47,377 nucleotides of DNA, from contig CAMZKN010000059.1 in NCBI GenBank assembly GCA_947311315.1, forward strand, positions 1 through 47,377, written 5' to 3'. Both the position numbers and the translations under genes were made by a program. Shown in pieces: positions 2,852 to 47,322 of the stretch. The DNA is from an uncultured Desulfobulbaceae bacterium. Lineage in GTDB: Bacteria > Desulfobacterota > Desulfobulbia > Desulfobulbales > Desulfocapsaceae. The notes under the pieces were generated by a model that saw only the letters and a list, made by a program, of their open reading frames with translations, made no database searches and was not told the DNA's origin. Each line of letters begins with the position of its first letter. Positions within the stretch are counted from its first letter, which is position 1.

Positions 2852-3688
2852 TCACACTATGTAAAAGACTGACGGTTTAGTTCCAAGAGAAGGTTTCCTC
2901 TGGATGGTATGTTCCTTGTCAAGAATCTGGCGAATTTCAGAATCCGGATCATTCAAATCGCCAAAAACGATTGCTCCGACATCTTTAACAGCCTCAACAC
3001 AGGCAGGTTCCTGACCGAGAGCGCGACGCTCTCCACAGAAATTACACTTCTCTACAACACCACGCATACGGGTAGGGAAATCGGGATTATACTCTTTAAT
3101 GTAAGGTCTGGGATCCATCCAGTTGAAACTCCTCGCTCCATATGGACAACCCATCATGCAGAAACGACAACCGATACAGCGATGAAAATCCATGGATACA
3201 ATACCGGTTTTTTCGTCCCTGAATGTCGCCTTAGTGGGACAAACTCGAACACAGGGAGGCTCATCACAGTGATTACAGAGCACCAGAAAATTATTTTCCT
3301 CAGTTATCTTCGATGAATGATAGGATGAATGCTCCGGGAAAACATTTTTATATGCCATATCCCAGATCCATTTTATTTCATTTTTATTCCCTTCAATCTG
3401 CGGAATATTATGCACCTTAATACAGGCGGCAGCTACCTTCTCAAGAAGCTCTGGATGACCATACAATTTGCGCATATCTATTAGCATGCCAAGGCGTACA
3501 CCTTTTGCAGAATCTTCTCCACCATGGCCCTCTGGCTTATGTTCAGCAGCACCATGCTCTGCAGCCTTCCCATGCCCAGAAGATGCAAGGGCTGGCGTAG
3601 ACGTCAGTTTGACTACTGCAGGTGCGCTTATCCCGGCAAGCGCAGTGGCACCCGCAATTTTCAGGAATTTTCTTCTTTGCTTATCCAT
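2852..3688 (-). CDS. dsrO: DsrO, periplasmic iron-sulfur subunit of DsrMKJOP
   Basis: Ferredoxin-like protein carrying several [4Fe-4S] clusters, exported by the Tat pathway. The start at 3688 gives an N-terminal twin-arginine signal (QRRKFLKIAG followed by a hydrophobic stretch ending near ALAS). Cluster ligands are seen in CNHCDEPPCVRVCP, CIGCRFCMMGCPYG, and CNFCGERRALGQEPAC plus later residues. A low-complexity His/Gly/Glu linker (GHGKAAEHGAAEHKPEGHGG) follows the signal. The reading frame is open to 3736, but 3688 is preferred because its ATG overlaps the dsrJ stop as TAATG, showing translational coupling. It probably relays electrons between the DsrJ hemes and DsrP. Confidence 0.95.
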   Translation of the reverse strand: MDKQRRKFLKIAGATALAGISAPAVVKLTSTPALASSGHGKAAEHGAAEHKPEGHGGEDSAKGVRLGMLIDMRKLYGHPELLEKVAAACIKVHNIPQIEGNKNEIKWIWDMAYKNVFPEHSSYHSSKITEENNFLVLCNHCDEPPCVRVCPTKATFRDEKTGIVSMDFHRCIGCRFCMMGCPYGARSFNWMDPRPYIKEYNPDFPTRMRGVVEKCNFCGERRALGQEPACVEAVKDVGAIVFGDLNDPDSEIRQILDKEHTIQRKPSLGTKPSVFYIV

Positions 3689-4092
3689 TAGTGTGTCTCC
3701 TTCTTTGTCGCCAGCGCTGACTGGGTTAAATGACAATCCCAGCAGTACGGTTTAACGGATGCATATTCATGACAGGAGTCACAGAATTTCTCCTTATTGC
3801 TATGGCACTGCATACAGGCCATCTGCAGACCTTTCCGGTATTGTTTACCATCCACGGTAACGGCAACACGGTCGCCGTCACGTAGAACATCATCACGCCA
3901 TTCATTGAGCATAACCATATGGTTTGCTCTCATTTCAGCGGCTGGTGCAATACACGCTTTTTCTCCACCCGGTGGCAGCTCGGGCTTGGGTACCGTACTT
4001 GCTGCCGTCGAGAACGCGTTGAACCAGAGCGGGAAGGTTACAAACAGGACGAATATAATCAGTCCCGGTATTATTGTTCCTTTATTGTACAT
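3688..4092 (-). CDS. dsrJ: DsrJ, triheme cytochrome c of DsrMKJOP
   Basis: Periplasmic cytochrome anchored by an uncleaved N-terminal helix (residues about 8-28). Three CxxCH heme sites are visible: CMQCH at 93-97, CDSCH at 104-108 and CWDCH at 117-121. C47, in a KACIAPAAEM context upstream of the heme region, is a candidate for the unusual cysteine axial ligand known in DsrJ proteins. That assignment is an inference from family knowledge. Length (134) is normal. The stop overlaps the dsrO start. Heme attachment would need a system II type assembly protein, and one lies at 11649-12476. Confidence 0.95.
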   Translation of the reverse strand: MYNKGTIIPGLIIFVLFVTFPLWFNAFSTAASTVPKPELPPGGEKACIAPAAEMRANHMVMLNEWRDDVLRDGDRVAVTVDGKQYRKGLQMACMQCHSNKEKFCDSCHEYASVKPYCWDCHLTQSALATKKETH

Positions 4093-20877: not shown

Positions 20878-20909
20878 AAAACAAACATAAACAAAAAGAA
20901 CGAATCGTA

Positions 20910-23330: not shown

Positions 23331-23339
23331 GAGGCAGTT

Positions 23340-24044
23340 ATGAGAAACAGTATAAGTTTTCGAGTCTGGGGGCGCTACGCTCTCTTTACTGACCCGATCA
23401 CTAAAACAGGCGGAGAAAAATGCACCTATCATATCCCGACATATGAAGCGATAAAAGGAGTGTTAAAATCAATTTACTGGAAACCAACCCTTATATGGCA
23501 TGTTGATAAAGTGCGCATAATGAAACCACTCAGAACCCAGACTAAAGGGACGAAGCCTCTGATCTGGGGAGGAGGGAATTCACTGGCCATCTACACTTTT
23601 CTCCACGACGTGGAATATCAGGTGCAGGCACATTTTGAATGGAATGAGCATAGATCTGAACTTGCCCCGGATCGTATCGACGGCAAACATTTCAATATTG
23701 CCAAACGAATGTTGGAAAAAGGAGGCCGACAGGACATTTTTCTGGGCGTAAGAGATTGCCAGGCCTATGTCGAACCATGTCCATTTGGCTCAGGTGAAGG
23801 TGCCTACGATGCTATAGAGGAACTCAGTTTTGGCCTGATGTTTCATGGATTTGATTACCCTGATGAAACGGGAAGAAACGAACTGACAACCCGTTTTTGG
23901 CATGCAACGATGCTTAGAGGAATACTCGACTTTCCGCGCCCTGAAGAATGCAAGGTTAAACGCTTTGTTAGAGAAATGATACCAAAAGACTTTGATCTTG
24001 ATAAAAGTATTCTCCCAGCCGAAAAAGAGGAGATTTTATTATGA
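23340..24044 (+). CDS. cas5c: Cas5c (Cas5d), crRNA-processing Cascade subunit
   Basis: RAMP-fold protein of 234 residues. In type I-C it cuts pre-crRNA and stays bound to the 5' handle, so no Cas6 is needed, and none is present here. The N-terminus (SFRVWGRYALFTDPITKTGGEKCTYHIPTYEAIKGVLKSIYW, read over residues 4-45) is the typical Cas5d start. A GGAGG site lies six bases before the ATG. Its stop overlaps the cas8c start as ATGA, so the two are translationally coupled. Confidence 0.95.
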   Translation: MRNSISFRVWGRYALFTDPITKTGGEKCTYHIPTYEAIKGVLKSIYWKPTLIWHVDKVRIMKPLRTQTKGTKPLIWGGGNSLAIYTFLHDVEYQVQAHFEWNEHRSELAPDRIDGKHFNIAKRMLEKGGRQDIFLGVRDCQAYVEPCPFGSGEGAYDAIEELSFGLMFHGFDYPDETGRNELTTRFWHATMLRGILDFPRPEECKVKRFVREMIPKDFDLDKSILPAEKEEILL

Positions 24045-26017
24045 GCTGGATGGCAAAGCTTTATGAAACATATGAGGCGGGAACAGCATTAGATTTACCA
24101 GATACTGAAAAACCAATGCCAATTAACCATACTTTGCAAAATGCCCATATTAAGATTGTAATTGATAGTAACGGCATATTTAAACGAGCTGAAACACTAG
24201 AAAAAACCCAAATTGTGTTACCAGCCACAGAAAAATCGGCAGGAAGAAGCAGCGGGGAAGCACCACATCCTTTAGCGGATAAAATTCAGTATATTGCCAA
24301 AGATTACGCCCACTATAACGGTACCAAAAAACCATATTTTGAAGGATACAAAAAGCAACTGGGCGACTGGTGCGATTCACCGTTTGCTACCTCGGCGGCT
24401 TATGCCGTTTATTCTTACATACAACAGGGCTGTGTTGTACACGATTTGATCGAAGCCCAAATACTTTACGTGGACGAAAAAGATCATTTATTACAGAAAT
24501 GGCCTTTTGAAGTTAACGAAAACAATCCGATTCCACCCATATTCAAAATTCTCCCTAAAGAAAAAGGAAAAATTGAAGTGGGATCGGCGCTTGTTTGCTG
24601 GGCTGTTGAAGACCGGGAAAATCTCAGTAGTAACACATGGACTGACCCTGAGGTACAACAAAGCTGGATCAAATTTAATTCCACAAACGCAGGAAACAAA
24701 GGACTCTGTTTTGCGTCCGGAGAAGAACAACCTTTAGCTGTAAATCATCCTGCTAAATTAAGACACACCGGAGATAAAGCCAAACTCATTTCAGCAAATG
24801 ACACCTCAGGGTTTACCTTCCGTGGACGTTTAATAACAGGAGCACAATCAGTTGGAATTGGCCAGGAGATCACCCAGAAAGCGCACAATGCTTTAAGCTG
24901 GCTCATTGCTCGCCAAGGCTATCGAAACGGAGATCAGGTTTATATCGCCTGGGCCGTATCAGGTAAAAAAATCCCGAAACCACTCATGGATCCCTGGGCG
25001 GAATTAAATAAAGAAATCACTATTCAAAAGGAAATAGCGCAACCAACCTCACAAGACAAAGATCATTCCGTCGATGTGGGAGAATTTTTTGCCCACCAGT
25101 TCAATAAATATCTGGCAGGGTATCGAGTAGAACTTGAAGCAACAGAGCAAATTATAGTAATGGGCCTGGACTCTGCAACACCCGGCAGAATGGGTATAAT
25201 CTATTACAGAGAACTTTTTGCAAGTGAATTTTTGGATCGTCTTCAATCCTGGCACAACGAATTTGCCTGGCCCCAACGCCATATCAAAGAATACCCCAAC
25301 CCCAAAAACAATAAAAAAATGGTTAGAAAAACGGTATGGCCTGTCAGTAGCCCTGTTCCGCGAAATATTGCCGACGCCGCTTATGGAGACATACTGAAAA
25401 GTAATAAAACTTTAGCAAAAAACATACTGGAACGTATACTGCCCTGCATTGTCGATGGTTCTCCCTTTCCCGAAGATATATTACTTGCAGCCGTTCGTCG
25501 AGCCTCCAATCGTAATAATTGTGAAAAATGGGAATGGGAAAGAAACCTTGGTATTGCTTGTGCTCTATTTAAAGGCTTCTACCTCCGACACCGGGTTAAA
25601 CAAAAAAGGAGAAACTATACCATGGCATTAGAAGAAGAAAGCAATTCGCGCGATTACCTCTATGGCCGCCTCTTGGCAATAGCAGAGAAAATTGAAGAAA
25701 TTGCTCTAAATGTTGCAGGAGAAAAAAGACCAACAAACGCAGCGCGATTAATGCAGCGTTTTGCTGATCGCCCCTTCTCGACATGGCGAAACATCGAACT
25801 GAGCCTCCAGCCATCCATACAGAGGTTGCAGGGGCAACGAGCCGGATTCTTAACAAATCGGAAAAAAGAGATGGATCAAATACTGGCATTATTTTCATCC
25901 GATGACTTTACCAGTGATAAACCGTTATCAGGAGAATTCTTACTCGGCTTCCATTGCCAGATTCAATACTGGCGAAATCTGGATACAATCAAAAATGACA
26001 ACAAAGAAGGAGTTTAG
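24041..26017 (+). CDS. cas8c: Cas8c (Csd1), large subunit of type I-C Cascade
   Basis: 658-residue large subunit that recognises the PAM and positions Cas3. Recognised by position between cas5c and cas7c, by length, and by family-like segments such as MSWMAKLYETYEAG at the start, KGLCFASGEEQPLAVNHPAKLR in the middle and the C-terminal helical region with ALEEESNSRDYLYGRLLAIAE. The last 131 codons contain an internal start that probably makes Cas11c (see 25622). The stop lies four bases before the cas7c ATG. Confidence 0.93.
   Translation: MSWMAKLYETYEAGTALDLPDTEKPMPINHTLQNAHIKIVIDSNGIFKRAETLEKTQIVLPATEKSAGRSSGEAPHPLADKIQYIAKDYAHYNGTKKPYFEGYKKQLGDWCDSPFATSAAYAVYSYIQQGCVVHDLIEAQILYVDEKDHLLQKWPFEVNENNPIPPIFKILPKEKGKIEVGSALVCWAVEDRENLSSNTWTDPEVQQSWIKFNSTNAGNKGLCFASGEEQPLAVNHPAKLRHTGDKAKLISANDTSGFTFRGRLITGAQSVGIGQEITQKAHNALSWLIARQGYRNGDQVYIAWAVSGKKIPKPLMDPWAELNKEITIQKEIAQPTSQDKDHSVDVGEFFAHQFNKYLAGYRVELEATEQIIVMGLDSATPGRMGIIYYRELFASEFLDRLQSWHNEFAWPQRHIKEYPNPKNNKKMVRKTVWPVSSPVPRNIADAAYGDILKSNKTLAKNILERILPCIVDGSPFPEDILLAAVRRASNRNNCEKWEWERNLGIACALFKGFYLRHRVKQKRRNYTMALEEESNSRDYLYGRLLAIAEKIEEIALNVAGEKRPTNAARLMQRFADRPFSTWRNIELSLQPSIQRLQGQRAGFLTNRKKEMDQILALFSSDDFTSDKPLSGEFLLGFHCQIQYWRNLDTIKNDNKEGV
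25622..26017 (+). CDS. cas11c: Cas11c small subunit from an internal start in cas8c
   Basis: Inside cas8c an AAGGAG at 25606-25611 lies ten bases before an in-frame ATG at 25622. The resulting 131-residue helical protein (MALEEESNSRDYLYGRLLAI to the cas8c stop) is the size of known I-C small subunits. Internal translation of Cas11 from cas8c is established for type I-C systems. That it happens here is inferred from the Shine-Dalgarno site. Confidence 0.7.
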   Translation: MALEEESNSRDYLYGRLLAIAEKIEEIALNVAGEKRPTNAARLMQRFADRPFSTWRNIELSLQPSIQRLQGQRAGFLTNRKKEMDQILALFSSDDFTSDKPLSGEFLLGFHCQIQYWRNLDTIKNDNKEGV

Positions 26018-26021
26018 AAAG

Positions 26022-26861
26022 ATGAGTTTAGAAAATAAATTTGACTTTGCCATTATGTTCAGTGTGAAACATGCAAACCCAAATGGAGATCCTCTCAATG
26101 GCAATCGCCCTCGTATCGACTATGAAGGCTATGGAGAAGTCACGGATGTCTGTATCAAAAGAAAAATTCGTGACCGGCTTCAGGAAAATGGCCACGCAAT
26201 TTTTGTCCAATCTGATGAAAAAAAAATTGACGGTATGCCCAGTTTAAAGGCCCGCGCCGAATCAGAAGAATTTGGGCTAGGTAAAGATACCTTCAATCGT
26301 AAAAAAACAAGCCCGGATGAAGCAGCCAGAAAAGCTTGCCGAAAATGGCTGGATGTTCGTAGCTTTGGGCAACTTTTTGCGTTTAAAAGTGAATCAAAGG
26401 ACGGTGTGTCCATTCCAATTCGTGGGCCGGTATCTATTCAGTCCGCATTCAGTGTTGAACCTGTAAGTGTAACCAGCACACAAATTACCAAAAGCGTAAG
26501 CGGTGAAGGAGATGGCACAAAAAAGAGCTCTGACACAATGGGTATGAAGCATCGTGTGGATCAGGCAATCTATGTCACCTTTGGAAGTATGAATCCTCAA
26601 CTTTCCGAACGTACCGGTTTTAACAACAGTGATGCAGAGACAATAAAATCTGTGTTACCAAAACTTTTTGAAGGAGACGCATCTTCTGCAAGACCCGAGG
26701 GCAGTATGGCGGTTGAGAAAGTAATATGGTGGCAGCACAATAGTAAATCGGGCCAATATTCCTCTGCCAAAGTACACCGTACTCTGCATGTTGAAAATGA
26801 TGGTAATTTCACACTCAATAATTTATCCGGCTTAGAGCCTGAAATTATCGATGGTTTTTAA
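26022..26861 (+). CDS. cas7c: Cas7c (Csd2), Cascade backbone subunit
   Basis: RAMP-fold backbone that polymerises along the crRNA. 279 residues, with the typical Csd2 start FDFAIMFSVKHANPNGDPLNGNRPR and IRGPVSIQSAFSVEPV with TSTQITKSVS in the middle. The ATG at 26022 has GAAGG about eleven bases upstream and follows the cas8c stop by four bases. The longer open frame from 25902 would overlap cas8c and is rejected. Unlike standard I-C loci, the next gene is a RhuM/Fic gene rather than cas4. Confidence 0.95.
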   Translation: MSLENKFDFAIMFSVKHANPNGDPLNGNRPRIDYEGYGEVTDVCIKRKIRDRLQENGHAIFVQSDEKKIDGMPSLKARAESEEFGLGKDTFNRKKTSPDEAARKACRKWLDVRSFGQLFAFKSESKDGVSIPIRGPVSIQSAFSVEPVSVTSTQITKSVSGEGDGTKKSSDTMGMKHRVDQAIYVTFGSMNPQLSERTGFNNSDAETIKSVLPKLFEGDASSARPEGSMAVEKVIWWQHNSKSGQYSSAKVHRTLHVENDGNFTLNNLSGLEPEIIDGF

Positions 26862-26862
26862 C

Positions 26863-27867
26863 ATGAAGGAAGACAAAAACAAAGAATCAGCCATGGAATT
26901 TGGCAACATCATACTATATCAAACCGAGAACGGAGTGGAAGCTGTAAACGTCCGTCTAGTCAACGATACTGTCTGGCTAAACCAAGCGCAAATGACTGAT
27001 CTGTTCCAGCGGAACAAACGAACTGTTTCGGAACATATCCGCAATGTATTTAAAGAAGAGGAACTGAACGAGAAGGCAGTTGTCCGGAAATTCCGGACAA
27101 CTGCAAATGATGGAAAAACATACCAGGTAAATTTCTACAATCTCGATGTAATTATTTCCGTGGGCTATCGGGTAAAATCAAAACAGGGTACCCGTTTTCG
27201 TATATGGGCGACATCGATCCTCAGGGATCATCTGGTAAAGGGATATACTTTAAATCAACGTCGCCTTGCAGAAACCGGGATTAGTGAAGCGCAGCAGGTG
27301 TTGACGCTCCTGTCCAATACCCTGGTCAGCCAGAATCTGATTACCGACGAGGGCCAATCTGTGCTTGATGTTGTTAACCGTTATGCAAAGACATGGCAGC
27401 TTTTATGGCAGTACGATGAAGATAATTTTCCTGCTACAAAACCTCAACAGGCTTCAAGCGAAACATTTGAAGTTGACATGGTTCGAACAGCCATAGATTC
27501 TTTAAAACAAGAGCTGACAGCAAAGGGAGAAGCAACAAATATATTCGGCAATGAACGAAACGATAATCTTGCCGGAATCATTGGCGCTATCCAACAGACA
27601 TTTGGCGGGCAGGATCTTTACCCCTCCACTGAAGAAAAAGCTGCCAATCTTCTCTATTTCGTTGTCAAAGACCATCCCTTTACCGATGGTAATAAACGGA
27701 TAGGCTCCTTTCTTTTCATTTTATTTCTACAGATTAACGGATTACTCGACAAAAGACAGTTTGATAGCAGCGCACTGGTTGCATTAACCCTGCTTACGGC
27801 TGCAAGTGCCCCCAAACAAAAAGATGTATTGATCCGGCTTATCGTTAACCTGCTCTCTGTGGAATAA
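26863..27867 (+). CDS. RhuM-Fic/Doc fusion protein inside the cas operon
   Basis: About 334 residues with two parts. The N-terminal half is the RhuM-type domain (IILYQTENGVEAVNVRLVND, WLNQAQMTDLFQRNKRTVSE, YNLDVIISVGYRVKSKQGTR), which has a helix-turn-helix-like element and is common in bacterial and phage proteins of unclear function. The C-terminal half is a Fic/Doc domain with the catalytic motif HPFTDGNKRIGSF near 27673-27711; Fic proteins transfer AMP or phosphate to targets. The start at 26863 lies one base after the cas7c stop; 26851 and 26893 are alternatives. It is followed ten bases later by cas4, so it is cotranscribed with the CRISPR genes. The target, any antitoxin partner and any CRISPR role are unknown. 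Confidence 0.88.
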   Translation: MKEDKNKESAMEFGNIILYQTENGVEAVNVRLVNDTVWLNQAQMTDLFQRNKRTVSEHIRNVFKEEELNEKAVVRKFRTTANDGKTYQVNFYNLDVIISVGYRVKSKQGTRFRIWATSILRDHLVKGYTLNQRRLAETGISEAQQVLTLLSNTLVSQNLITDEGQSVLDVVNRYAKTWQLLWQYDEDNFPATKPQQASSETFEVDMVRTAIDSLKQELTAKGEATNIFGNERNDNLAGIIGAIQQTFGGQDLYPSTEEKAANLLYFVVKDHPFTDGNKRIGSFLFILFLQINGLLDKRQFDSSALVALTLLTAASAPKQKDVLIRLIVNLLSVE

Positions 27868-27877
27868 AGGATCGACT

Positions 27878-28507
27878 ATGTACAGTGAAGACGATCTACT
27901 GATGCTTTCTGCTCTTCAACACCTCCTGTTTTGCCCACGTCAATGTGCGCTCATCCATATCGAGCAACAGTGGGCTGAAAACCTCTTTACAGCAGAAGGC
28001 CGTGTCCTGCATGAACGGGTTCATACCGCCGCCATGGAATCACGCCGCAGAATCAAGGTTGAATTTGATGTACCTCTTCGTTCCCTGCGACTTGGCATAA
28101 TTGGGCGTGGTGATATTGTTGAATTTCACATGCAGGATGATAAGCAGTGGCTCCCCTTCCCTGTAGAATATAAACGAGGCCGGGAAAAACAAGATAATTC
28201 GGACAAGGTTCAGCTTTGTGCCCAGGCCATATGTCTTGAAGAAATGCTGAACACAACTGTTCCTGCGGGAGCACTCTATTACGGCAAAAAGAAACGGCGA
28301 ATGAAAATTGTCTTTGACCAGGATTTACGCCAGGAAAACACGACTACATCAGCCAAACTGCATGGCCTGATAGAAAGTGGCGTGACACCTGAACCACAAT
28401 ACAGGCCTGCCTGTAAAAGCTGTTCGTTTGTCGATACATGCCTGCCGCAAGCTATGGGAAAGAAAAACAACGTTGAAAAGTACATGGAGAAAATTTTATC
28501 ACCATGA
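27878..28507 (+). CDS. cas4: Cas4 adaptation nuclease
   Basis: RecB-like nuclease of 209 residues that trims prespacers and selects PAM-bearing ones with Cas1-Cas2. Iron-sulfur ligands are visible: one cysteine in the LLFCPRQC N-terminal region and a cluster CKSCSFVDTC at the C-terminus. The nuclease core includes GRGDIVEF and PVEYKRGR, where D, E and K form the RecB-type active site. The stop overlaps the cas1 start (ATGA), showing coupling. Confidence 0.95.
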   Translation: MYSEDDLLMLSALQHLLFCPRQCALIHIEQQWAENLFTAEGRVLHERVHTAAMESRRRIKVEFDVPLRSLRLGIIGRGDIVEFHMQDDKQWLPFPVEYKRGREKQDNSDKVQLCAQAICLEEMLNTTVPAGALYYGKKKRRMKIVFDQDLRQENTTTSAKLHGLIESGVTPEPQYRPACKSCSFVDTCLPQAMGKKNNVEKYMEKILSP

Positions 28508-29532
28508 AAAAACATCTCAATACTCTTTTTGTCACAACCCAGGGGGCCTATCTTGCCAAAGATGGGGAAACTGTAGCGGTACGAATTGAAAAAGAGGTTA
28601 AACTTCGTATTCCCGTCCATACCCTTGAAGGTATTGTCTGCTTTGGTAATGTTGGTTGCAGCCCTTTTCTTATGGGTTTTTGTGCCGGACGTGACGTATC
28701 CATCTCTTTTCTTACCGAATATGGCCGTTTTCTGGCAAGAGTCGTCGGTCCGATGTCCGGTAACGTGCTGCTGCGCCGAGAGCAGTATAGACGGGCGGAC
28801 GATCTTGAATTTTCAGCCGGAGTGAGCAGGGCCTTTCTCACCGGCAAAATTATCAACTGTCGAACGGTTCTCCAGCGGGTTATCCGCGACCATCGAAATA
28901 AGGTTGACGTCTCTGCTGTTGAAGAGGCTATCAAAAGATTAAACACCTCAGTACGCCAATTACAAAAAGAATTTGATCTTGATGCAATCCGTGGCATTGA
29001 AGGGGATGCGGCCCATGTCTATTTTGGTGCCTTTGATCACCTTATAATTCGCAATAAAAAGGATTTTTTCTTCCACCAGCGCAGCAGACGACCACCACTG
29101 GACAGAATTAATTGCCTGCTCTCATTTCTCTACACTCTTATTATGCACGATGTCCGCTCCGCACTGGAATGTACGGGCCTTGACCCCGCTGTGGGATTTC
29201 TCCACCGTGATCGTCCAGGGCGCCCCGGATTGGCCCTTGATCTTATGGAAGAATTTCGCCCCATGGCAGATCGCCTCGCCCTGTCTCTTATCAATCTTGG
29301 CCAATTACAGGAAAAAGATTTTACTGTCAGCGAAGCGGGCGGTGTCCGCATGAAAGATGAAGCAAGAAAAACCCTGCTGGTAAGCTATCAAAAGAGGAAA
29401 CAGGACGTTATGCAACACCCTTTTCTTGAGAAAAAGCTCCCGCTTGGCCTGTTTTTTCAAATTCAAGCCTTACTTCTGGCCCGGTATTTACGAAATGATA
29501 TTGATGGATATCCTCCCATGATATGGAGATAA
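28504..29532 (+). CDS. cas1: Cas1 integrase, type I-C
   Basis: Metal-dependent integrase of 342 residues that inserts new spacers at the leader end. The catalytic glutamate lies in GIEGDAAHVYFGAF, the histidine in GFLHRDRPGRPGLALDLMEEF, and the following aspartate/glutamate (LDLMEEFRP) complete the site. The N-terminal beta domain begins LNTLFVTTQGAYLAKDGE. It overlaps cas4 by four bases and precedes cas2 by three. Confidence 0.97.
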   Translation: MKKHLNTLFVTTQGAYLAKDGETVAVRIEKEVKLRIPVHTLEGIVCFGNVGCSPFLMGFCAGRDVSISFLTEYGRFLARVVGPMSGNVLLRREQYRRADDLEFSAGVSRAFLTGKIINCRTVLQRVIRDHRNKVDVSAVEEAIKRLNTSVRQLQKEFDLDAIRGIEGDAAHVYFGAFDHLIIRNKKDFFFHQRSRRPPLDRINCLLSFLYTLIMHDVRSALECTGLDPAVGFLHRDRPGRPGLALDLMEEFRPMADRLALSLINLGQLQEKDFTVSEAGGVRMKDEARKTLLVSYQKRKQDVMQHPFLEKKLPLGLFFQIQALLLARYLRNDIDGYPPMIWR

Positions 29533-39569: not shown

Positions 39570-40307
39570 ATGACAGATTCCCCAAGAGATACCATCTTTA
39601 GTGCAGATTCTGTCACGGAAGATTTTGTTTTCAACGAACGGGTGGTCGAGGTATTTGACGATATGCTCGACCGTTCGGTTCCCCATTACCGTGAAGTTAT
39701 CCATGCGACTTCGAATCTTCTTGAGCGATACCTGCAAAAAGAGGATAGCGTATACGACCTCGGTTGCGCCACTGGAACAACACTACTTGAATTTTCCCGA
39801 ATCCTTGAAGCTAAAGATCTACAATTTATTGGCATTGATAATTCCGAGCCAATGCTCACTAAGGCCAGGCTAAAGGCAGAAATCTTTTCAAAAAAACATA
39901 AACTCTCTTTTTTACTCGAAGACATCACCAGCTTTGACCATGCAGGTGCCGGGGCCATTATCCTCAACTATACGCTGCAATTCATCCGGCCATTACAGCG
40001 TGAAGGATTTTTACAACGCCTTTTCAACAATCTTCGACCGGGAGGCGTTCTGATCCTCAGTGAAAAAGTGCTCAGCCACGACAGCAAGCTCAACCGAAAA
40101 TACATCGATATCTACCACCATTTTAAAAAATCCAGAGGCTACTCGGAACTTGAAATTGCCAAAAAACGCGAGGCTCTGGAAAATGTCCTTATCCCCTTCT
40201 CCATCAATGAGAATGTAACCATGCTGCAAAACTGCGGTTTTGAATCCGTTGAAACCTATTTTCAATGGTTTAACTTTGTCTCGTTTGTTGCAGTCAAACC
40301 TGAATAA
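39570..40307 (+). CDS. cmoA: Carboxy-SAM synthase CmoA
   Basis: Makes carboxy-S-adenosylmethionine from SAM and prephenate for modification of the tRNA wobble uridine. 245 residues, with the CmoA start DTIFSADSVTEDFVFNERVVEVFDDMLDRSVPHY (split by reading), the SAM motif VYDLGCATGTTLLEF and the IGIDNSEPML strand. Length equals the E. coli protein closely. It is followed 13 bases later by cmoB, its functional partner. Confidence 0.95.
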   Translation: MTDSPRDTIFSADSVTEDFVFNERVVEVFDDMLDRSVPHYREVIHATSNLLERYLQKEDSVYDLGCATGTTLLEFSRILEAKDLQFIGIDNSEPMLTKARLKAEIFSKKHKLSFLLEDITSFDHAGAGAIILNYTLQFIRPLQREGFLQRLFNNLRPGGVLILSEKVLSHDSKLNRKYIDIYHHFKKSRGYSELEIAKKREALENVLIPFSINENVTMLQNCGFESVETYFQWFNFVSFVAVKPE

Positions 40308-40320
40308 TTACCTGTAAATA

Positions 40321-41283
40321 ATGAACTATCTCTCCAAACTGCCAGACTCAGCCCGTGCAGGCGATATCGAACAGATCCATACCCGGCGCCAAACATGGGT
40401 AAATCAGCAGAAAAAGGGTTTTCTCCGCTATAGAAATCCATACAAACAGCTGAGTACATTCAAGGCAGAACAGATTGATTTTTCAGGTGATAAGGTTACC
40501 ATTGGACACCACGATGAAGTTGACGACGCATCACGTCAAATCATAAGTGAAAACCTCAAAGCTTTCATGCCATGGCGCAAAGGCCCGTTTTCCGTATTTG
40601 GTATCGACATTGATGCAGAATGGCGCAGTGAACGCAAATGGAACAGGGTGACACCCGTTCTGCCGGATCTTGAAGGCAAGATCATCGCCGACATCGGCTG
40701 CAACAACGGCTACTATATGTTTCGCATGAGCCACCAGCGTCCCGAATTTGTGTTGGGATTTGAACCATCCGTACAACACTATTTCTGCTTCAAGGCACTC
40801 AACGCCATGGCACAACGGCCGGAGCTGGAAATTGACCTTCTCGGTATCGAGCACCTGCACCTCTTTGAAACGTGCTTTGACATTGTATTTCTAATGGGCA
40901 TCATCTACCATCGCCCCTCCCCGGTTGACACCCTGCGGGATATTTTTCTCGCTCTACAACCTGGAGGAACCCTAATTGTCGAGTCCCAGGCACTACCAGG
41001 AGACGGCCCATTTGCTCTCTTCCCTGATAAAACCTACGCCAAGGTTCCTGGCACATATTTCGTCCCCACCGCCCACTGCCTGCGCAACTGGTTGCAAAAA
41101 GCCGGATTTATAGACATCGATATCTTCTGCACTCATCCCATGAACGAAAAGGAACAACGGCGAACAGACTGGATGCACTTCGAATCCTTTACCGATTTTC
41201 TCGACCCGGATGATCCGCAGATGACCGTGGAAGGATATCCCGCACCCTGCAGGGTTTATATCAGTGCGAGGAAGAAAGGATGA
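40321..41283 (+). CDS. cmoB: tRNA U34 carboxymethyltransferase CmoB
   Basis: Uses carboxy-SAM to convert 5-hydroxyuridine to 5-oxyacetyluridine at position 34 of several tRNAs. 320 residues. GPFSVFGIDIDAEWRSERKW precedes the SAM motif KIIADIGCNNGYYMFRM; VLGFEPSVQHYFCF and FLMGIIYHRPSPVDTLR are the other family marks. Its order with cmoA supports the call. Confidence 0.96.
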   Translation: MNYLSKLPDSARAGDIEQIHTRRQTWVNQQKKGFLRYRNPYKQLSTFKAEQIDFSGDKVTIGHHDEVDDASRQIISENLKAFMPWRKGPFSVFGIDIDAEWRSERKWNRVTPVLPDLEGKIIADIGCNNGYYMFRMSHQRPEFVLGFEPSVQHYFCFKALNAMAQRPELEIDLLGIEHLHLFETCFDIVFLMGIIYHRPSPVDTLRDIFLALQPGGTLIVESQALPGDGPFALFPDKTYAKVPGTYFVPTAHCLRNWLQKAGFIDIDIFCTHPMNEKEQRRTDWMHFESFTDFLDPDDPQMTVEGYPAPCRVYISARKKG

Positions 41284-41592
41284 TGGTTAAGTAAAAACTC
41301 TCCATCTCATTTGTTGGGGTGTAATACGAAAAAGACAAGATTTACAGATTGTTAACTCATCGATTTAATACTTTAATTTGAATATCGAATGTCGAAGGAA
41401 GAGAAAACCTTCTGCTGTTCAACATTCCTTGTTCGATATTCGATATTCGTCTTCTAATGTTCAGTATTCATTTTTGCACTGTACCCTCCACCTTGTTGCG
41501 AGTTTATTAAAGAAAATTTGCCTTTCAATGCCAGTATGATTACACTGGCATTTCAGTTAACAACATCATATTCCGAGCAGAGGAGCTTATCT
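41284..41592. repeat. Intergenic region with family B repeat copy 2
   Basis: The 309-base gap holds a second copy of the dispersed repeat at 41407-41475. Just upstream, 41382-41401 (AATATCGAATGTCGAAGGAA) is inverted relative to CCTTGTTCGATATTCGATAT at 41427-41446, giving a hairpin. AGAGGAGC before the next ATG is a ribosome site. No gene was found in the gap. Confidence 0.7.
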
Positions 41593-42144
41593 ATGGATTT
41601 ATCAACGTGCACACTTTACAGCAGTGGATTGAAGGGCGCAGAAGCCTGTTTTGGCGAAGCCGCAGAAAAAGCTGGTATCAAAGAAATCATCTATTCTTTT
41701 GATGGGCATAAACTCACAAGAGACAAAAATGTAACAATACTCAGCAAAGAACAACTTGAACGCGGCGATATCAGCATGGAACTCGCATCCCGCATGCTCA
41801 ACCGCACCTATTACGAGACAGAAAAAATCAGAAAAGTCCTGCAGACTATCTTTCATATGGTAAATAGCGGCCATCAGGTTTTTGTTATAGGTTCCATTCA
41901 GGAAGATGGTTCGGTCAAAGGTGGCACCGGCTGGGCAGTTGAACTGGCAAAAATGTTCAACCGACCTCTCCACGTTTTCGATCAGCCGAAAAAAACATGG
42001 TTCACCTGGGACAATGGCTGGAAAGAAGATTCTCCCAAAATCGAGTACGACACCTTTGTCGGCTCCGGCACCCGTTATCTCAGTGACGCTGGCCACGAAG
42101 CCATTACCAAACTTTTCCAGGATTCTATCCAGGCCCAGAGTTAA
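41593..42144 (+). CDS. Rossmann-like (SLOG-type) protein of unknown function
   Basis: 183 residues, soluble. The start LSTCTLYSSGLKGAEACFGEAA looks like a nucleotide-fold strand-turn-helix (YSSGLKGAE). A second conserved-looking stretch is VFVIGSIQEDGSVKGGTGWAVELAK followed by RPLHVFDQPKKTWFTW, with a glycine-rich loop and a downstream strand as in LOG/SLOG nucleotide-binding proteins. The last segment has FVGSGTRYLSD. These folds bind nucleotides, and some act as sensors or lysine-decarboxylase-like enzymes; the function here is unknown. The ATG at 41593 is preferred because of AGAGGAG upstream. Confidence 0.7.
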   Translation: MDLSTCTLYSSGLKGAEACFGEAAEKAGIKEIIYSFDGHKLTRDKNVTILSKEQLERGDISMELASRMLNRTYYETEKIRKVLQTIFHMVNSGHQVFVIGSIQEDGSVKGGTGWAVELAKMFNRPLHVFDQPKKTWFTWDNGWKEDSPKIEYDTFVGSGTRYLSDAGHEAITKLFQDSIQAQS

Positions 42145-42241: not shown

Positions 42242-42817
42242 GTGAAAAGATATCTTTTTTTCATTCTTTCGATCATACTTTTCCCGTCCCTGTCCCACTC
42301 TTCCAACTCCTACGAACAATGTCGGAACCACTTTCTGCATGGCCAATATTCCATTGCCGAAGAATCCTGCCTCAAGGCGGCGGATGATGGTAATATTGAT
42401 GCCCAGAAATGGCTGGCTTTTCTCTACACAAAGGGAAAAGGAGTGGCACAGGATTACAAAAAAGCATTTTACTGGCGAAAAAAAGCTGCAAAGGCGGGCG
42501 ATCCCAACAGTCAGTATCACATTGGCCGTTTTTTTCAACTGGGCAACGGTGTCGAAATGGATCTCAACAAGGCGAGATACTGGTATGAAAAAGCAGCGAT
42601 CAAAGGTGATGTCAATGGTCTTTACGCCATGGGAAATCTTTACCGCCAAGGGATTGGCGTAGAGATTGATCTGCCCAAAGCTTATGGTTGGTACAGTCTG
42701 GCGGCTGAAAAAAACCTTCTCCTGGCAAAGCAGACAATGGAAAGCATGGCAGAAACCATGACAGTGCAACAGATAGTCAGAGGGAAAAAGCTCCAGGAGA
42801 CTCTCATAAAAAAATGA
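42242..42817 (+). CDS. Sel1-repeat protein, exported
   Basis: 191 residues with a signal peptide (ending LSHSS) and several Sel1-like helical repeats, seen as AQKWLAFLYTKGKGVAQDYKKAFYWRKKAAKAGD, SQYHIGRFFQLGNGVEMDLNKARYWYEKAAIKGD and LYAMGNLYRQGIGVEIDLPKAYGWYSLAAEKN (each read in parts of 20 or fewer). Such proteins mediate protein-protein contacts. The start is GTG at 42242 with GAGGAGG about eight bases upstream. It is followed by a shared terminator. Confidence 0.88.
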   Translation: MKRYLFFILSIILFPSLSHSSNSYEQCRNHFLHGQYSIAEESCLKAADDGNIDAQKWLAFLYTKGKGVAQDYKKAFYWRKKAAKAGDPNSQYHIGRFFQLGNGVEMDLNKARYWYEKAAIKGDVNGLYAMGNLYRQGIGVEIDLPKAYGWYSLAAEKNLLLAKQTMESMAETMTVQQIVRGKKLQETLIKK

Positions 42818-42820
42818 TAA

Positions 42821-42858
42821 AAAAGCCGCCATACACAGATACGTGTATGGCGGCTTTT
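42821..42858. terminator. Bidirectional terminator
   Basis: AAAAGCCGCCATACAC and GTGTATGGCGGCTTTT form a perfect 16-base stem with a six-base loop. The A-rich and T-rich ends make it usable on both strands. It separates the Sel1 gene (rightward) from the rhodanese gene (leftward). Confidence 0.93.
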
Positions 42859-42885
42859 TGTCTGTACTTCTCTGTCTGAGAGTGA

Positions 42886-44226
42886 CTATTCCTCTATATC
42901 ACAATCATTGAGCTCACAGGATACTTCAGCCATCAGAAATTTGGCATTTTTATAACCATTTTTAATCAATTCCTTATAGGCCATTTCCGCACGGGCTCCG
43001 GTTGTACAATGAACATAAATATTCTGTTCTTTGGTCAACCCGTCGATGGTTGCAAAGAATTCATCCATCCTGGAACATAACTGATCGAGCGGGATATGCT
43101 TTGATCCTTTCAATTTACCAACGGCTACTTCCTCATTTGTCCGTACATCAAGAATAACTGCTTTTGACGGATCTTCGAGAGCCGCCTCAAAGTCGCTGAT
43201 TTTCACTTCACCAGGCGCAAGGATTCGTTTCCAGGAAACCTCGGTTACAACAGGGCCTTTGATGAGTTTACCACCAAGGCGCTTCCAGCCATGGTAACCA
43301 TCCTCAACCAGAGCGACCTTTTTATACCCTTCTTCCTTGAACATTTTCAGTGCAGCAAGCATTTCTTCGTTGCTGTCACTGAACAAAACGACAGGTGCCT
43401 TGATTGGAATCTCTTCCATCGCATATTCAAGATCTGCAAACGGCATGCTTACAGAGCGTGGAATACGTGCTTTAGCCGCTTTTTCAGCACTACGCAGATC
43501 AACTAATACATTATTTCCCTGACAGATAAAACCATATCCGGCATAGGTAGCATATCCTGCCTTACTCCAGGCAGGCTCACCATCAAGATAAACTTTAACA
43601 TTTTTATAACCAGCTTGGACCGCCTGACCGGCGGACATAGGGCTCATGCCTCAGGTAGGCCCTCCACAATAAAAGACAAGGGACTTATTGGGGTTTTTCG
43701 GTAACAGGCCAAGCAGCTCCTGCATTTCACAAACCGGAATGGATATTGCGCCTGGCAGGTGTCCAGTGCCATAACGATGAGCGGGACGGGAATCGATAAG
43801 AACAAAATCTTCCCCGCTATCGATCATTTTTTTCAAGTCTTCGGTTTTTATGCCCACAACACCTTTTGGCATTTTGGCAAGTTTAGGCTTAACTGACTTC
43901 GCGTAGACATCTTTGCCCTGCTTTTCGTAACTGACAATAATACCATGACCCTTCGTGGCATGTTCTATGCCTTTGGTATTCTCATCAAATTTGACCATAA
44001 TAGTCTGGGCTTTTTTGCCCTTGCCAACCTGAATGGAAATAGTCTTGGCTTTGTTGGATTTTCCGACAACCCGTCCTTTATAGACGGGGCCTGTCATCTT
44101 CTTTTTTGCAATGGCGGTTGGTTTTACTGCCGATCCAGTCGTCTTACTGTTCTCTTGAGCACAACCGCTCAGGAAAAAAGTAGCTACAATCAGAGCCGAC
44201 AGTACTTTAACAATCGTCTTTTGCAT
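42886..44226 (-). CDS. Three-domain rhodanese lipoprotein with selenocysteine (in-frame TGA)
   Basis: One 446-codon frame interrupted only by TGA at 43651-43653, read here as selenocysteine U192. The start at 44226 has GAGGAG upstream. A lipoprotein signal (VATFFLSGC, lipid C22) is followed by a basic region and three rhodanese domains. The first has the active loop FYC187GGPTU192GMSP, where homologues usually have a second cysteine at the U position. The second has SDSNEE in place of a catalytic cysteine and is probably inactive. The third has HCTTGARA. A SECIS-like hairpin lies 17 bases after the TGA. Rhodaneses move sulfane sulfur, so a periplasmic sulfur-transfer role fits this organism. 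The alternative, two separate genes, would cut the first domain inside its active site. Confidence 0.88.
43617..43653 (-). promoter_or_regulatory. Bacterial SECIS-like element with its UGA
   Basis: On the mRNA, UGA (43651-43653) is followed by 16 bases and then CCGCC-GGUCA-GGCGG (43620-43634). The stem is five GC pairs and the loop begins GGUC, with G in the first two loop positions as required by bacterial SECIS rules and as in the E. coli fdhF loop. The loop lies about 22-26 bases after the UGA, within the expected distance. The fold was read by eye, not calculated. Confidence 0.8.
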
Positions 44227-44396
44227 AAACTCCTCCTCTGTTGGTATTACAAATTGTTGAAAAAAGTGACCGAACCTGCCTACAGGCAGGGTCAGCATTA
44301 TATTGAATAACTAATTACCATAATAGTTCGTTAAATTGCGACAATTATATTCTGTTTGTTTATGTTTATGAAAAATGGTGTTTTTTAGGCAAGCGC

Positions 44397-45173
44397 CTAC
44401 GACAGCGCCCCTGACGGAAGTTGATAAAGATCGTCAGCAAAATTATCGACCGCTGTTTTTTCCTGCTCAACCCAGGCGTAAAATTTTTCCACCAGGTTTT
44501 TACCAGTTATCCGTGCGCCATGTTGCGGCACAATCATCTCCACATCCAGCTGACGAACCATGGTCGCCCAGCATTTACACGCATGCGTACTTGGCATAAA
44601 ACGGTTGTGAAAACCTGCCATCACCGGAACATGCTGCTGAAAGTCTTCTTCGGTTGCAATATTTTCTGTATGCGGCTCAAGCGAAGCACCAAGATCGCCG
44701 GTAAATAAAATTTTGGCCACAGGATCGTAGAGTTGAAAGTTACCACAGGAATGGAGAAAGTGTGCAGGAACTGCCACAAGAGGACTTCCGGCAAGATCAA
44801 ACCGCATCCCCTTATCGGGGATTGCAGTAATACGTTCTTCTGCAAGGCCCCTCACGCAGAACGCAGGAATAAACCTGACCCAGAGGGCACAAATCATAAT
44901 ATCCGCCTTACAAATAGGCAGCCAGAGATTCAAACCGGAACCGATATCCGGATCCTGATGGGAAAGAAAAATATGCTCCAGGGCACCGGCGGGCAGGTAT
45001 CTGGACATCGCCCCGAGAACATTCTTATAAATTCTGTATCCACCGCAGTCAAGCAGTAGTCCCCGTTTCTTATGGACGATGAGAAACTGGTTAGACTGCA
45101 CTTCGCCATCATGTGTAAGATCGCCAAATTTAATACACTTATGATCTTCATTTTCAAACAGTATTATCGACAT
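44397..45173 (-). CDS. Diiron metallo-beta-lactamase-fold protein (ODP/FprA-like)
   Basis: 258 residues. Metal ligands follow the oxygen-binding diiron pattern: H72, D74, D76 in SHQDPDIG, H141 in AHFLHS, D160 in LFTGDLG and H218 in VPQHGA. FprA-type proteins have glutamate where D74 stands, and they also carry a flavodoxin domain, absent here. Such proteins sense or reduce O2 or NO. The ATG at 45173 is chosen over the longer frame to 45224 because MSIILFENEDHKCIKFGD is a typical family start. It is leftward and separated from the rhodanese gene by 170 bases. Confidence 0.8.
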   Translation of the reverse strand: MSIILFENEDHKCIKFGDLTHDGEVQSNQFLIVHKKRGLLLDCGGYRIYKNVLGAMSRYLPAGALEHIFLSHQDPDIGSGLNLWLPICKADIMICALWVRFIPAFCVRGLAEERITAIPDKGMRFDLAGSPLVAVPAHFLHSCGNFQLYDPVAKILFTGDLGASLEPHTENIATEEDFQQHVPVMAGFHNRFMPSTHACKCWATMVRQLDVEMIVPQHGARITGKNLVEKFYAWVEQEKTAVDNFADDLYQLPSGALS

Positions 45174-45285
45174 TTTGCACCTATGTATGGAATATTGGTA
45201 AAGTTTCAGCCAGAAACAGCTCAAGCATTCAACTAATTTACCATTTTATTACATACAATTGCAAATAAGTCTCCAAGAAAATATC

Positions 45286-45450
45286 GCGGCTATTTATGAG
45301 TCTGTTGATTTAATAGGATTTTTGTCTGATATCGAGGCATATGGAAAATTTTACCACAGGCATATAGTTGATATTCCGAGGATAAAATTTTTCATATAAC
45401 GAAGAGATCGGGCAGAATACATTAAATCAACAGGCTCATTTATCAGCTGC
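45286..45450. repeat. Long imperfect palindrome between genes
   Basis: About 165 bases whose two halves pair over most of their length. Outer arms: GCGGCTATTTATGAG with CTCATTTATCAGCTGC. Next: CTGTTGATTTAAT with ATTAAATCAACAG, perfect over 13. Inner: ATATGGAAAATTTTA with ATAAAATTTTTCATAT. The centre is a 27-base loop region. It has no ORF. It is AT-rich and fills the gap between the diiron protein and the carboxyltransferase gene. The sequence differs from families A and B. Confidence 0.7.
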
Positions 45451-45459
45451 ATGGAGAAG

Positions 45460-47118
45460 TTATTCGTCTGAATCAATTTTCAGAATCTTGCCACCAGGTT
45501 TCAGAGTATCACCTTTTTTCGCATAGAGCCCGGTAACAATACCTTCCATCTCACTGAGTATTGGCGTCTGCATCTTCATTGCTTCAATAATCGCCACCCT
45601 GTCACCAACCAGAACCTCCTGCCCCTCTACAACAGATATTTCGACCACTTTACCTGAAAATGGTGAGCGAACATCGCCTGCTTTTGCCAGATCGAGAATC
45701 TCTTCCTTGCTGAGCACCAGTGATTCACCCGTCTGCGCCGACGTCCTGTCAGCCTGAAAAGTAAACAGAGACTGATGATGATCAACCGTCAAGTATACGC
45801 TGGTTTCCCCGGTATCAGTTATCGGCGAAGGGCCTATTTCAACCATATGTTCTTTGCCCTGATGATCTCTAAAGGCCAGTTTGTCACCCACCTCAAACCC
45901 ACCCTGACGATTAAAAATCGCCGGAGGTAAAACATAGACCGAGCCGTATTGCTCTTCAAATTTTATAAATTCCACAGCATCGCCCGGATGCTGCAGATAG
46001 AGTATAAGTTGTTCATCTGTAGGTTCGACACCAATTTGTTCCGCTAGGTCGTAGCGTTCAATGGCAAGATCCATATCGCTGATGCCCTCGACCCCACCTT
46101 CTTCTTCAAGAACCTTCTTCCAGTCATCCCCGAGAACCTTTTCAAAAATCCACTCGTCCGGCTCATGGAATGGAAACGGCCCATATTTGCCGAGCAAAAG
46201 ATTGCGAAGATCACCGGACGGATTTACATAACGCTCCCCTTCAAGCACATTGGTCACGGCGGTTGTCCAGAGAATCTGAGAACCGGGGGTAACCGACCAG
46301 TAGTTGCCAAGCTCCTTTTGCACCCGAGGCAATTCTTTTTGCAGAATATCCGGCATTTTGTCAAGAAAATCACCTTTAGACGCCTGTTCAAGGCTTGATC
46401 CCATCGCCCCGCCGGGGAGTTTATGAATCTGTACCGTCGGCTGAAACCCCTTTATCTGGGATTCAAACTGCTCATAATATTGCCTCTGATCCCGGATTGT
46501 TTCCGATGTCTCTATCACAGCTTCTTCATCAAGACCTTCTGCCTCGAAACCTAACTCTTTTAGCGTCTGCACCACTGTTAAAATTGGCGGCGGCCCATAA
46601 AAACCTGTAAAGGCAGAATCGGCTGCATCAATAATAGAGGCACCGTTCTTAACTGCGGCAACAATCCTGCCGACATCATTGCCGTCGGTATTGTGTCCAT
46701 GATAATGTATGGGGACATCCGGGTATCGCTGCTTCAAGGCATCAACCAGCTCACCTATTCGGTTTGGTGTACCCAGACCGCCATGATTTTTGATGCAAAG
46801 AGTAATATCCCTGCCCGTCACATCTATAATCTCACCGGCTTTTGCAATATAGTAGTCGTTGGTATGCTCAGGCCCCGTTGAAAAACAGATGCACGGTTCG
46901 TTTAATTTGCCTGCCTTGCCCACTTCTTCAAAAACGGCGTGCATATTAGGTACATAGTTGAGAAAATCAAAGGTACGCCAGACATCCACATATTTTGCGA
47001 ACTCACTCACCGTAAAACGGATAACATTTTGTGGATAGGGGCGATAACCAAAGAGATTTACCCCCCTGCACAGGGTCTGGAACATGGTGCCGGGCATACT
47101 CTCCCGCAGTTTTCGCAA
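45460..47118 (-). CDS. Divergent biotin-dependent carboxyltransferase (pyruvate carboxylase subunit B-like)
   Basis: Transfers CO2 between biotin and an oxoacid, as in pyruvate or oxaloacetate carboxyltransferases. The listed start is TTG 47118, giving 552 residues. The TIM-barrel domain has TLCRGVNLFGYRPY, K110 in CIKNHGGLG (usual CIKDMAG) and HxH at H140/H142 in YHGHNTDGND. The biotinyl domain has K515 in IEAMKMQTP. The usual Thr-containing TSQPS loop is replaced by FYGPPP, so the active site is unusual. Clear homology (KAGYFSLEITGGASVHVD) lies upstream of 47118, in frame to 47319, but no ATG/GTG/TTG is there. The true start, or a frameshift near 47320, is unresolved. BirA at 34838 could biotinylate it. 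Confidence 0.8.
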   Translation of the reverse strand: MRKLRESMPGTMFQTLCRGVNLFGYRPYPQNVIRFTVSEFAKYVDVWRTFDFLNYVPNMHAVFEEVGKAGKLNEPCICFSTGPEHTNDYYIAKAGEIIDVTGRDITLCIKNHGGLGTPNRIGELVDALKQRYPDVPIHYHGHNTDGNDVGRIVAAVKNGASIIDAADSAFTGFYGPPPILTVVQTLKELGFEAEGLDEEAVIETSETIRDQRQYYEQFESQIKGFQPTVQIHKLPGGAMGSSLEQASKGDFLDKMPDILQKELPRVQKELGNYWSVTPGSQILWTTAVTNVLEGERYVNPSGDLRNLLLGKYGPFPFHEPDEWIFEKVLGDDWKKVLEEEGGVEGISDMDLAIERYDLAEQIGVEPTDEQLILYLQHPGDAVEFIKFEEQYGSVYVLPPAIFNRQGGFEVGDKLAFRDHQGKEHMVEIGPSPITDTGETSVYLTVDHHQSLFTFQADRTSAQTGESLVLSKEEILDLAKAGDVRSPFSGKVVEISVVEGQEVLVGDRVAIIEAMKMQTPILSEMEGIVTGLYAKKGDTLKPGGKILKIDSDE

Positions 47119-47322
47119 CTTAAGAAAGGGGTTGACCTGCTTTCTGAGAATATCTACATGAACAGATGCGCCACCTGTGATTTCCAGCGAAAAATAGCCG
47201 GCCTTTTCCCGGTGTTCTGCGGCAAGAAGATCTGTGTGCAGTAAAATCCTGTTTTTAAAATCGGACTGGGACTGATCCCTTGCCGTATTATAGGTATCAC
47301 AGTATGACTTGATACTATTTTA

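What the first reader, a model, noticed from the sequence alone, without database searches (positions are those of the whole stretch)
42886..44226. Selenocysteine-containing triple rhodanese lipoprotein
Seen: one frame from 44226 to 42886 is broken only by TGA at 43651-43653, and the TGA falls inside a rhodanese active loop (C187-GGPT-TGA-GMSP). A CCGCC-GGUCA-GGCGG hairpin lies 17-31 bases after the TGA, with the loop starting GGUC. Known: bacterial SECIS elements lie just after the UGA with G at the loop start, and Desulfobacterota often use selenocysteine. Inference: the second active-site thiol is selenocysteine, giving a Cys/Sec pair in a periplasmic sulfur-transfer lipoprotein next to an active sulfur metabolism. 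Annotation tools would split it into two genes.
Basis: partly seen in the sequence, partly recalled or inferred. Interest (0 to 1): 0.88.

Follow-up and report, generated by a model that had tools for sequence, protein, structure and literature searches.

The report
Selenocysteine-containing triple rhodanese lipoprotein
This gene carries an internal stop codon that is predicted to be read as the rare amino acid selenocysteine, likely giving one exported sulfur-handling protein; more than a hundred related genes share that codon and the small RNA hairpin after it, and public protein sets often hold only the second half of such genes.

Summary
Frame 44226-42886(-) is broken only by TGA 43653-43651, inside a rhodanese loop YCGGPT-U-GMS; the hairpin CCGCC-GGUCA-GGCGG lies 17-31 nt after it. 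The genome holds selA, selB, tRNA-Sec(tca) and two selD. Of 138 homologues inspected, 112 have TGA at this codon, 22 have Cys and 4 distant ones have neither. The hairpin's four-pair core is intact in 112 of 112 TGA genes but in 3 of 22 Cys genes; synonymous re-drawing predicts 10.5 of 88 in the main set. A restart at the ATG after the TGA does not explain this: 16 of 24 distant TGA genes lack that ATG. I read it as a real, annotation-hidden selenoprotein: a predicted lipoprotein with three rhodanese domains whose first active site pairs catalytic Cys187 with Sec192, likely for persulfide/polysulfide redox (inferred). Rhodanese selenoproteins are already catalogued, one form with this UxxS motif, so it is a new member of a known kind. 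Additional finding: this copy, with a Sel1 gene, belongs to a Desulfocapsa-like clade and sits where congeners keep their own distant Sec rhodanese.

The parts
42886..44226 (-). whole gene, 446 codons, TGA at codon 192 predicted to be read as Sec
   Evidence: homologues
43651..43653 (-). in-frame TGA = predicted Sec192, position +5 from the rhodanese catalytic Cys
   Evidence: conserved
43620..43634 (-). SECIS-like hairpin CCGCC-GGUCA-GGCGG, nt 17-31 after the TGA
   Evidence: comparative
43666..43668 (-). Cys187 codon, catalytic-Cys position of rhodanese domain 1
   Evidence: invariant in the 20-row alignment
44161..44226 (-). signal peptide with lipobox LSGC (Cys22)
   Evidence: sequence; lipobox-like in 48 of 100 homologues with a complete N-part
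43561..43845 (-). rhodanese domain 1 (Cys/Sec active loop)
   Evidence: PF00581 match
43279..43518 (-). rhodanese domain 2, no Cys at the active loop
   Evidence: PF00581 match; alignment
42934..43194 (-). rhodanese domain 3 with ordinary loop HCTTGAR (Cys407)
   Evidence: PF00581 match
42901..42918 (-). C-terminal Cys pair Cys437/Cys442
   Evidence: at least 2 Cys in the last 22 residues in 95 of 101 genes
42819..42854 (.). terminator-like inverted repeat GCCGCCATACAC..GTGTATGGCGGC + T6 between this gene and the convergent Sel1 gene
   Evidence: sequence, (no scan run)
42242..42817 (+). Sel1-repeat gene that accompanies this rhodanese in L067 and L068

Best explanation
The open frame is a single selenoprotein gene: its internal UGA is predicted to be decoded as selenocysteine with the help of the hairpin that follows, likely giving a lipid-anchored, exported protein with three rhodanese domains that handles sulfane sulfur through a Cys187/Sec192 pair. 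Shown: the frame, the hairpin and its dependence on UGA, the Sec machinery, and the Cys-for-Sec replacements. Inferred: that Cys187 of domain 1 is loaded with sulfane sulfur (from polysulfide, thiosulfate or a persulfide) as in ordinary rhodaneses, that the selenol at +5, which stands where domain 3 and ordinary rhodaneses carry Arg, attacks or resolves the Cys187 persulfide as a redox partner and releases sulfide or passes the sulfur on, and that domain 3 Cys407 and the C-terminal Cys pair relay electrons or sulfur. Domain 2 is structural.
For: Sec machinery in the same assembly: selA 628 bits, SelB wing 64.8 bits, tRNA-Sec 70.4 bits with anticodon tca, two selD that each carry a TGA themselves (contexts). 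Codon: 88 TGA and 13 Cys in 101 distinct genes; 108 and 17 in 125; in a check of 12 further stretches 4 TGA, 5 Cys, 3 neither. An independent protein set agrees: of 79 full-length homologues among the 120 listed, Cys at 192 in 77 and at 187 in 76; two (P0032, P0038) lost both together. Hairpin: four-pair core in 88 of 88 TGA genes, expected 10.5 under synonymous re-drawing, 757 of 39738 phase-matched windows elsewhere, 3 of 13 Cys genes, expected 1.2; 20 of 20 TGA and 0 of 4 Cys in a distant sample; 4 of 4 and 0 of 5 in a third. Covariation on 28 chosen sequences: 95% of cells paired, 14 cells with changes on both sides (shuffled mean 2.5, 0 of 500), slid controls 23.6-60% paired. Tree: at least 7-8 Sec/Cys changes. 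The same loop and spacing follow the TGA of an unrelated Sec rhodanese of this genome that passes NF041203.
Against: No experiment. Single-sequence fold not better than shuffles; no Rfam match. In the main set the ATG two codons after the TGA is kept in 84 of 88 and an SD-like 5-mer stands before it in 61 of 88, as a restart would want. One genome with a TGA copy, G033, shows no SelB match. The outermost stem pair forms in only 34 of 88. Four distant homologues have neither U nor Cys at the spacing (L055, L177, L181, L187). The domain-3 Cys is Ser in 10 of 79 proteins, so a relay through it is not general. No conserved sulfur-gene neighbourhood was seen: the commonest neighbours were GARS/AIRC, Sua5, histidine kinase and ABC-ATPase families.
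Confidence: 0.72

Rival explanations
1. Two separate proteins: translation stops at the TGA and restarts at the ATG at 43647, giving a short lipoprotein and a 253-aa cytoplasmic double rhodanese.
For: ATG at that codon in 84 of 88 TGA genes, SD-like 5-mer in 61 of 88; 41 of the 120 listed database proteins are such downstream halves, at least 37 of them beginning MS.
Against: In distant TGA genes the codon is CTC, CTT, TTA, TTC or CTG in 15 of 20 and TTC in one more. The restart product would begin after the active loop and lose the signal peptide. Cys homologues are one uninterrupted frame. It does not explain the hairpin.
Confidence: 0.04
2. Pseudogene or sequencing error: the TGA is a disabling mutation.
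For: None beyond the TGA itself.
Against: TGA at the same codon in 112 of 138 homologues from different assemblies, frame kept on both sides.
Confidence: 0.01
3. TGA is a sense codon genome-wide (for example Trp), not Sec.
For: One other frame type with internal TGA exists in the genome (selD, two other rhodaneses).
Against: 5 of 23 window ORFs examined end in TGA; the internal TGA replaces Cys, not Trp, and the genome has tRNA-Sec, selA, selB and selD.
Confidence: 0.01
4. A real selenoprotein, but not a sulfur-handling one: Sec192/Cys187 reduces another substrate such as a peroxide, selenite/tellurite or a metal, with the rhodanese fold as scaffold.
For: Sec at the loop makes a Cys-x4-Sec pair, unlike single-Cys sulfurtransferases; 5 of 101 homologues carry a CxxCH haem motif in the N-part; a Geobacter cluster with a rhodanese lipoprotein and cytochromes is tied to selenite and tellurite reduction through its porin ExtI (passages, PMC5877670, PMC6148476).
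Against: Catalytic Cys position and rhodanese fold kept in domains 1 and 3; hosts are mostly sulfur-metabolising Desulfobulbales-type bacteria by record titles. Whether ExtH itself is a relative was not tested.
Confidence: 0.22

Closest known systems
Rhodanese-like domain-containing protein form 1 (PF00581, UxxS, example WP_010941598.1), listed as a predicted selenoprotein in PMC13188914 and PMC9312934
   Same: PF00581 and Sec in a U-x-x-S motif (here UGMS; UVLS in the f28 group); attributed in the review to the bSECISearch paper
   Different: The accession could not be fetched, so orthology is untested; the tables give neither a three-domain architecture, the Cys-x4-Sec pair nor this clade.
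NF045694 TsoB, rhodanese/DsbD fusion-like selenoprotein (UxxxxU)
   Same: Rhodanese loop with two chalcogen residues at the same spacing, at the catalytic and +5 positions
   Different: 58.6 bits against a cut-off of 805, matching one domain; two Sec and a DsbD-like part there, one Sec and three rhodanese domains here.
NF041203 rhodanese_LYCAU (seleno)protein
   Same: Exported rhodanese selenoprotein; a true member in this genome has the same hairpin loop and spacing
   Different: 66.8 bits against 115 for the window protein; motif CAU, single domain.
EanB (6ktw, 6h98) and YnjE (2wlr), multi-rhodanese proteins; PA 1yt8
   Same: Several rhodanese domains with one dominant active site; best PDB matches of the model
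   Different: 13-18% identity in the EanB and YnjE rows, whole-chain TM about 0.2, so only single domains match; none has a Sec or Cys at +5 as far as I recall.
ExtH of Geobacter sulfurreducens
   Same: About 49 kDa rhodanese lipoprotein (passages in PMC6148476, PMC5877670)
   Different: Not described there as a selenoprotein in the passages seen; sequence not compared.

Membership tests
bacterial UGA-Sec selenoprotein | in-frame UGA with the same protein continuing | tested here: met
bacterial UGA-Sec selenoprotein | hairpin just downstream of the UGA with G early in the loop | tested here: met
   core stem 112 of 112 TGA genes, 3 of 22 Cys genes; covariation
bacterial UGA-Sec selenoprotein | selA, selB, selC, selD in the genome | tested here: met
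bacterial UGA-Sec selenoprotein | Cys homologues at the Sec site | tested here: met
   22 of 138 genes, 77 of 79 full-length database proteins
bacterial UGA-Sec selenoprotein | selenium in the purified protein | not testable with these tools
   needs 75Se or mass spectrometry
Rhodanese-like form 1 (UxxS) | PF00581 and UxxS | tested here: met
   table passage
Rhodanese-like form 1 (UxxS) | orthology with WP_010941598.1 | not tested
   record not in the collections offered; only two papers name it
NF041203 rhodanese_LYCAU | score above 115 bits | tested here: not met
   66.8 bits
NF045694 TsoB | score above 805 bits, UxxxxU, DsbD-like part | tested here: not met
   58.6 bits; Cys at the first position
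thiosulfate/polysulfide sulfurtransferase (activity) | measured sulfur transfer | not testable with these tools
   none

The most novel reading that the evidence does not exclude
A rhodanese turned into a selenothiol redox enzyme: Sec in place of the loop Arg makes a Cys-x4-Sec couple that reduces persulfides or polysulfide in the periplasm, a widespread periplasmic entry step of sulfur metabolism in these bacteria that annotation has split in two; the gene is exchanged between genera with its recoding hairpin and here has replaced a distant Sec version at the same site.
Probability: 0.3. Interest if true: 0.7.

Novelty: new member of a known kind. Interest (0 to 1): 0.45.

Why it matters
Nearly a third of the database relatives listed are amputated halves (41 of 120), so a conserved exported protein of sulfur-cycling bacteria is mis-annotated and its active site is missing from omics searches. 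The Sec/Cys replacements with matching hairpin decay are a natural experiment on Sec loss. If the Cys-x4-Sec couple is a persulfide or polysulfide reductase, it would add a selenium-dependent step to sulfur disproportionation and reduction, whose first steps are still open according to the abstracts seen.

Tried and rejected
Rejected: pseudogene, Trp reassignment, restart at the next ATG (see rivals). Misbinned contig: the pyruvate-carboxylase-type neighbour is 83% identical to same-genus genomes, so the contig belongs to the bin. Conserved operon: only scattered housekeeping neighbours. Single-sequence folding and Rfam gave nothing. Whole-chain structure search gave domain-level matches only. 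Literature; two searches returned no paper; I found no paper naming this three-domain form in those searches, which cover only an open-licence library. Of 15 allowed papers I saw only found passages of PMC13188914, PMC9312934, PMC6148476, PMC5877670, PMC2398784, PMC1088965, PMC8318568, PMC1794560, PMC8538045, PMC12998232, PMC9751629, PMC5516251 and PMC3739170; none was read whole. Biases: the genome-contig scan used one peptide pattern with Cys at the site and kept the best 80 of 196 relatives, which favours Cys genes and near relatives; the four-pair core was fixed after I saw that the outer pair varies; the 28 sequences were picked by me from 108 for variety; alignment A1 holds 20 of 22 loci (L028 and L030 left out); site rows needed a motif with U or Cys, and homologues without it (L055, L177, L181, L187) are counted apart; matches without a fetched locus were mostly not inspected. 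The tree is a quick LG+G4 search and the clade for the AU test was named after seeing it.

Full report
What is there. On the minus strand a frame runs from ATG 44226 to TAG 42886 with one internal TGA at 43653-43651. The product has a signal peptide with lipobox LSGC, a small N-terminal beta region, and three PF00581 rhodanese stretches. Domain 1 has the loop YCGGPTUGMS: Cys187 is at the rhodanese catalytic position and the TGA stands at +5, where the ordinary loop of domain 3, HCTTGAR, has Arg. Domain 2 has no Cys at its loop. The model (20-row alignment, Cys for Sec) has mean pLDDT 85.7 with residues 1-45 disordered; PDB matches are rhodanese proteins, at domain level only, for example 3nhv over 106 columns at 1.6 A, while whole-chain TM is about 0.2.

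Sec machinery. The assembly (96% complete, 1% contaminated) holds selA, SelB, tRNA-Sec with anticodon tca and two selD genes over cut-off, each with a TGA. SelB is found in 36 of 37 relatives searched; G033, which has a TGA copy (L030), is the exception.

Conservation of the codon. Of 37 relatives, 33 have some rhodanese match (single-domain matches included). From these, a scan of named genomes (best 80 of 196 relatives) and extra stretches I extracted 101 distinct genes: 88 TGA, 13 Cys. All 22 loci L009-L030 and all 80 loci have U or Cys at the site. A phylum-wide sample had matches at E 1e-30 in 45 of 395 genomes, adding 20 TGA and 4 Cys genes. Sum: 138 homologues, 112 TGA, 22 Cys, 4 neither. 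In the protein database 79 full-length relatives among the 120 listed (of 513) have Cys192 in 77 and Cys187 in 76; two lost both together; domain-3 Cys407 is Ser in 10. The Cys/Sec couple of domain 1 is thus kept better than the ordinary active site of domain 3.

The hairpin. In the window it spans nt 17-31 after the TGA. The four inner pairs are present in 88 of 88 TGA genes against 10.5 expected if the same amino acids were written with randomly drawn synonymous codons of the same gene; phase-matched windows elsewhere reach 757 of 39738; Cys genes 3 of 13, expected 1.2. The fifth pair forms in 34 of 88. In the distant samples it is 20 of 20 and 4 of 4 for TGA, 0 of 4 and 0 of 5 for Cys. Relatedness inflates these counts, but stems co-vary between clades: CCGCC/GGCGG, CTGCC/GGCAG, CCGCT/AGCGG, CCGCA/TGCGG. 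On 28 sequences picked for variety, 14 cells changed on both sides against 2.5 in shuffles and 0-7 in slid versions. Between the window and its congeners' distant copy, DNA similarity inside the gene is limited to 43556-43680, which holds the active loop, TGA and hairpin. An unrelated LYCAU-type Sec rhodanese of the same genome has GTGCC-GGTCT-GGCAC at exactly the same spacing. The loop GGUC recalls the E. coli fdhF SECIS (recalled, not tested here).

Restart rival. ATG two codons after the TGA is present in 84 of 88 genes of the main set and an SD-like 5-mer in 61 of 88, a real point for restart. But in the distant TGA genes it is absent in 15 of 20; in the third sample I read that codon in L183 (TTC) and from the motifs of L184-L186 the residue is Leu, so only 8 of 24 could have it at most. 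Methionine or leucine there is best read as a protein constraint.

Evolution. In a tree of 125 rows (108 TGA, 17 Cys) the states need 8 changes, 7 forced by starred branches, and the 20-row and 14-row outer groups are all TGA; the root is not inferred, but repeated Sec-to-Cys loss with hairpin decay is the simplest reading. The window copy groups with L067 (86%) and L068 (uncultured Desulfocapsa), not with the copies of its own genus; forcing the latter is rejected (AU p 6e-77, clade named after seeing the tree). Yet the flanks are those of the genus: CmoB-like and the 41518 gene on the left, pyruvate-carboxylase-type gene on the right, with the ODP gene shared with G008. In G005, G008, G009, G011, G012, G013 and G003 matching flank genes surround or adjoin their own U-T-M-S rhodanese. 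The stretch 42311-44236, Sel1 gene plus rhodanese, matches L067 instead. G000 has no second full-length copy. I infer replacement in place by a two-gene piece from a Desulfocapsa-like source.

Function. No conserved operon partner was seen. Sulfur-oxyanion genes are 36 kb off in the window. Published hints are indirect: a rhodanese-domain protein was detected only under thiosulfate disproportionation in Desulfolithobacter (passage, PMC9751629), and Desulfocapsa sulfexigens lists nine rhodaneses including the adjacent tags UWK_03368 and UWK_03369 (passage, PMC3739170), which could be the two halves of such a gene (not tested). The Cys-x4-Sec couple in place of Cys-x4-Arg, the parallel UxxxxU of TsoB (table passage, PMC13188914), and the loss of both residues together argue for redox chemistry on a persulfide rather than plain sulfur transfer; this remains inference.

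Status. Predicted rhodanese selenoproteins are in print, including a form with motif UxxS. The window gene is best filed as a member of that kind, with orthology to its type accession untested.

Noticed in passing
window 42242-44236 with flanks 40002-42118 and 44428-47289: Sel1 + Sec rhodanese of a Desulfocapsa-like clade occupy the site where same-genus genomes keep a distant Sec rhodanese; apparent replacement in place of one selenoprotein gene by another.
   Followed up: partly
L053 (G000:C202) about 541-1062, TGA 745-747: Another rhodanese of this genome with TGA exactly at the catalytic Cys position (VVYUATGGRSR), followed by a further domain.
   Followed up: partly
L054 (G000:C122) 3418-3798, TGA 3679-3681: LYCAU-type Sec rhodanese (NF041203, 159 bits) with signal peptide and the same GCC-GGTCT-GGC hairpin.
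   Followed up: yes
L029, L030, L056, L057, L058 and several of L176-L185: Homologues with a CxxCH haem-binding motif in the N-part and no C-terminal Cys pair in the first five (5 of 101 genes).
   Followed up: partly
relatives, for example G007:C1:969091-969420: Frames of about 580-600 aa with a rhodanese domain and two TGA in many relatives, possibly TsoB-like double selenoproteins.
   Followed up: no
G235:C37 and G235:C39 (L182, L183): One genome with both a Cys and a Sec copy of this protein.
   Followed up: no
window 20853-29532: Cas3 and Csd1 genes, a CRISPR system (type I-C by recall).
   Followed up: no
L049 and L050 (G000:C116, C191): Two selD genes, each with an N-terminal TGA (GSGUASK, RTCGUAAK), in one genome.
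   Followed up: partly
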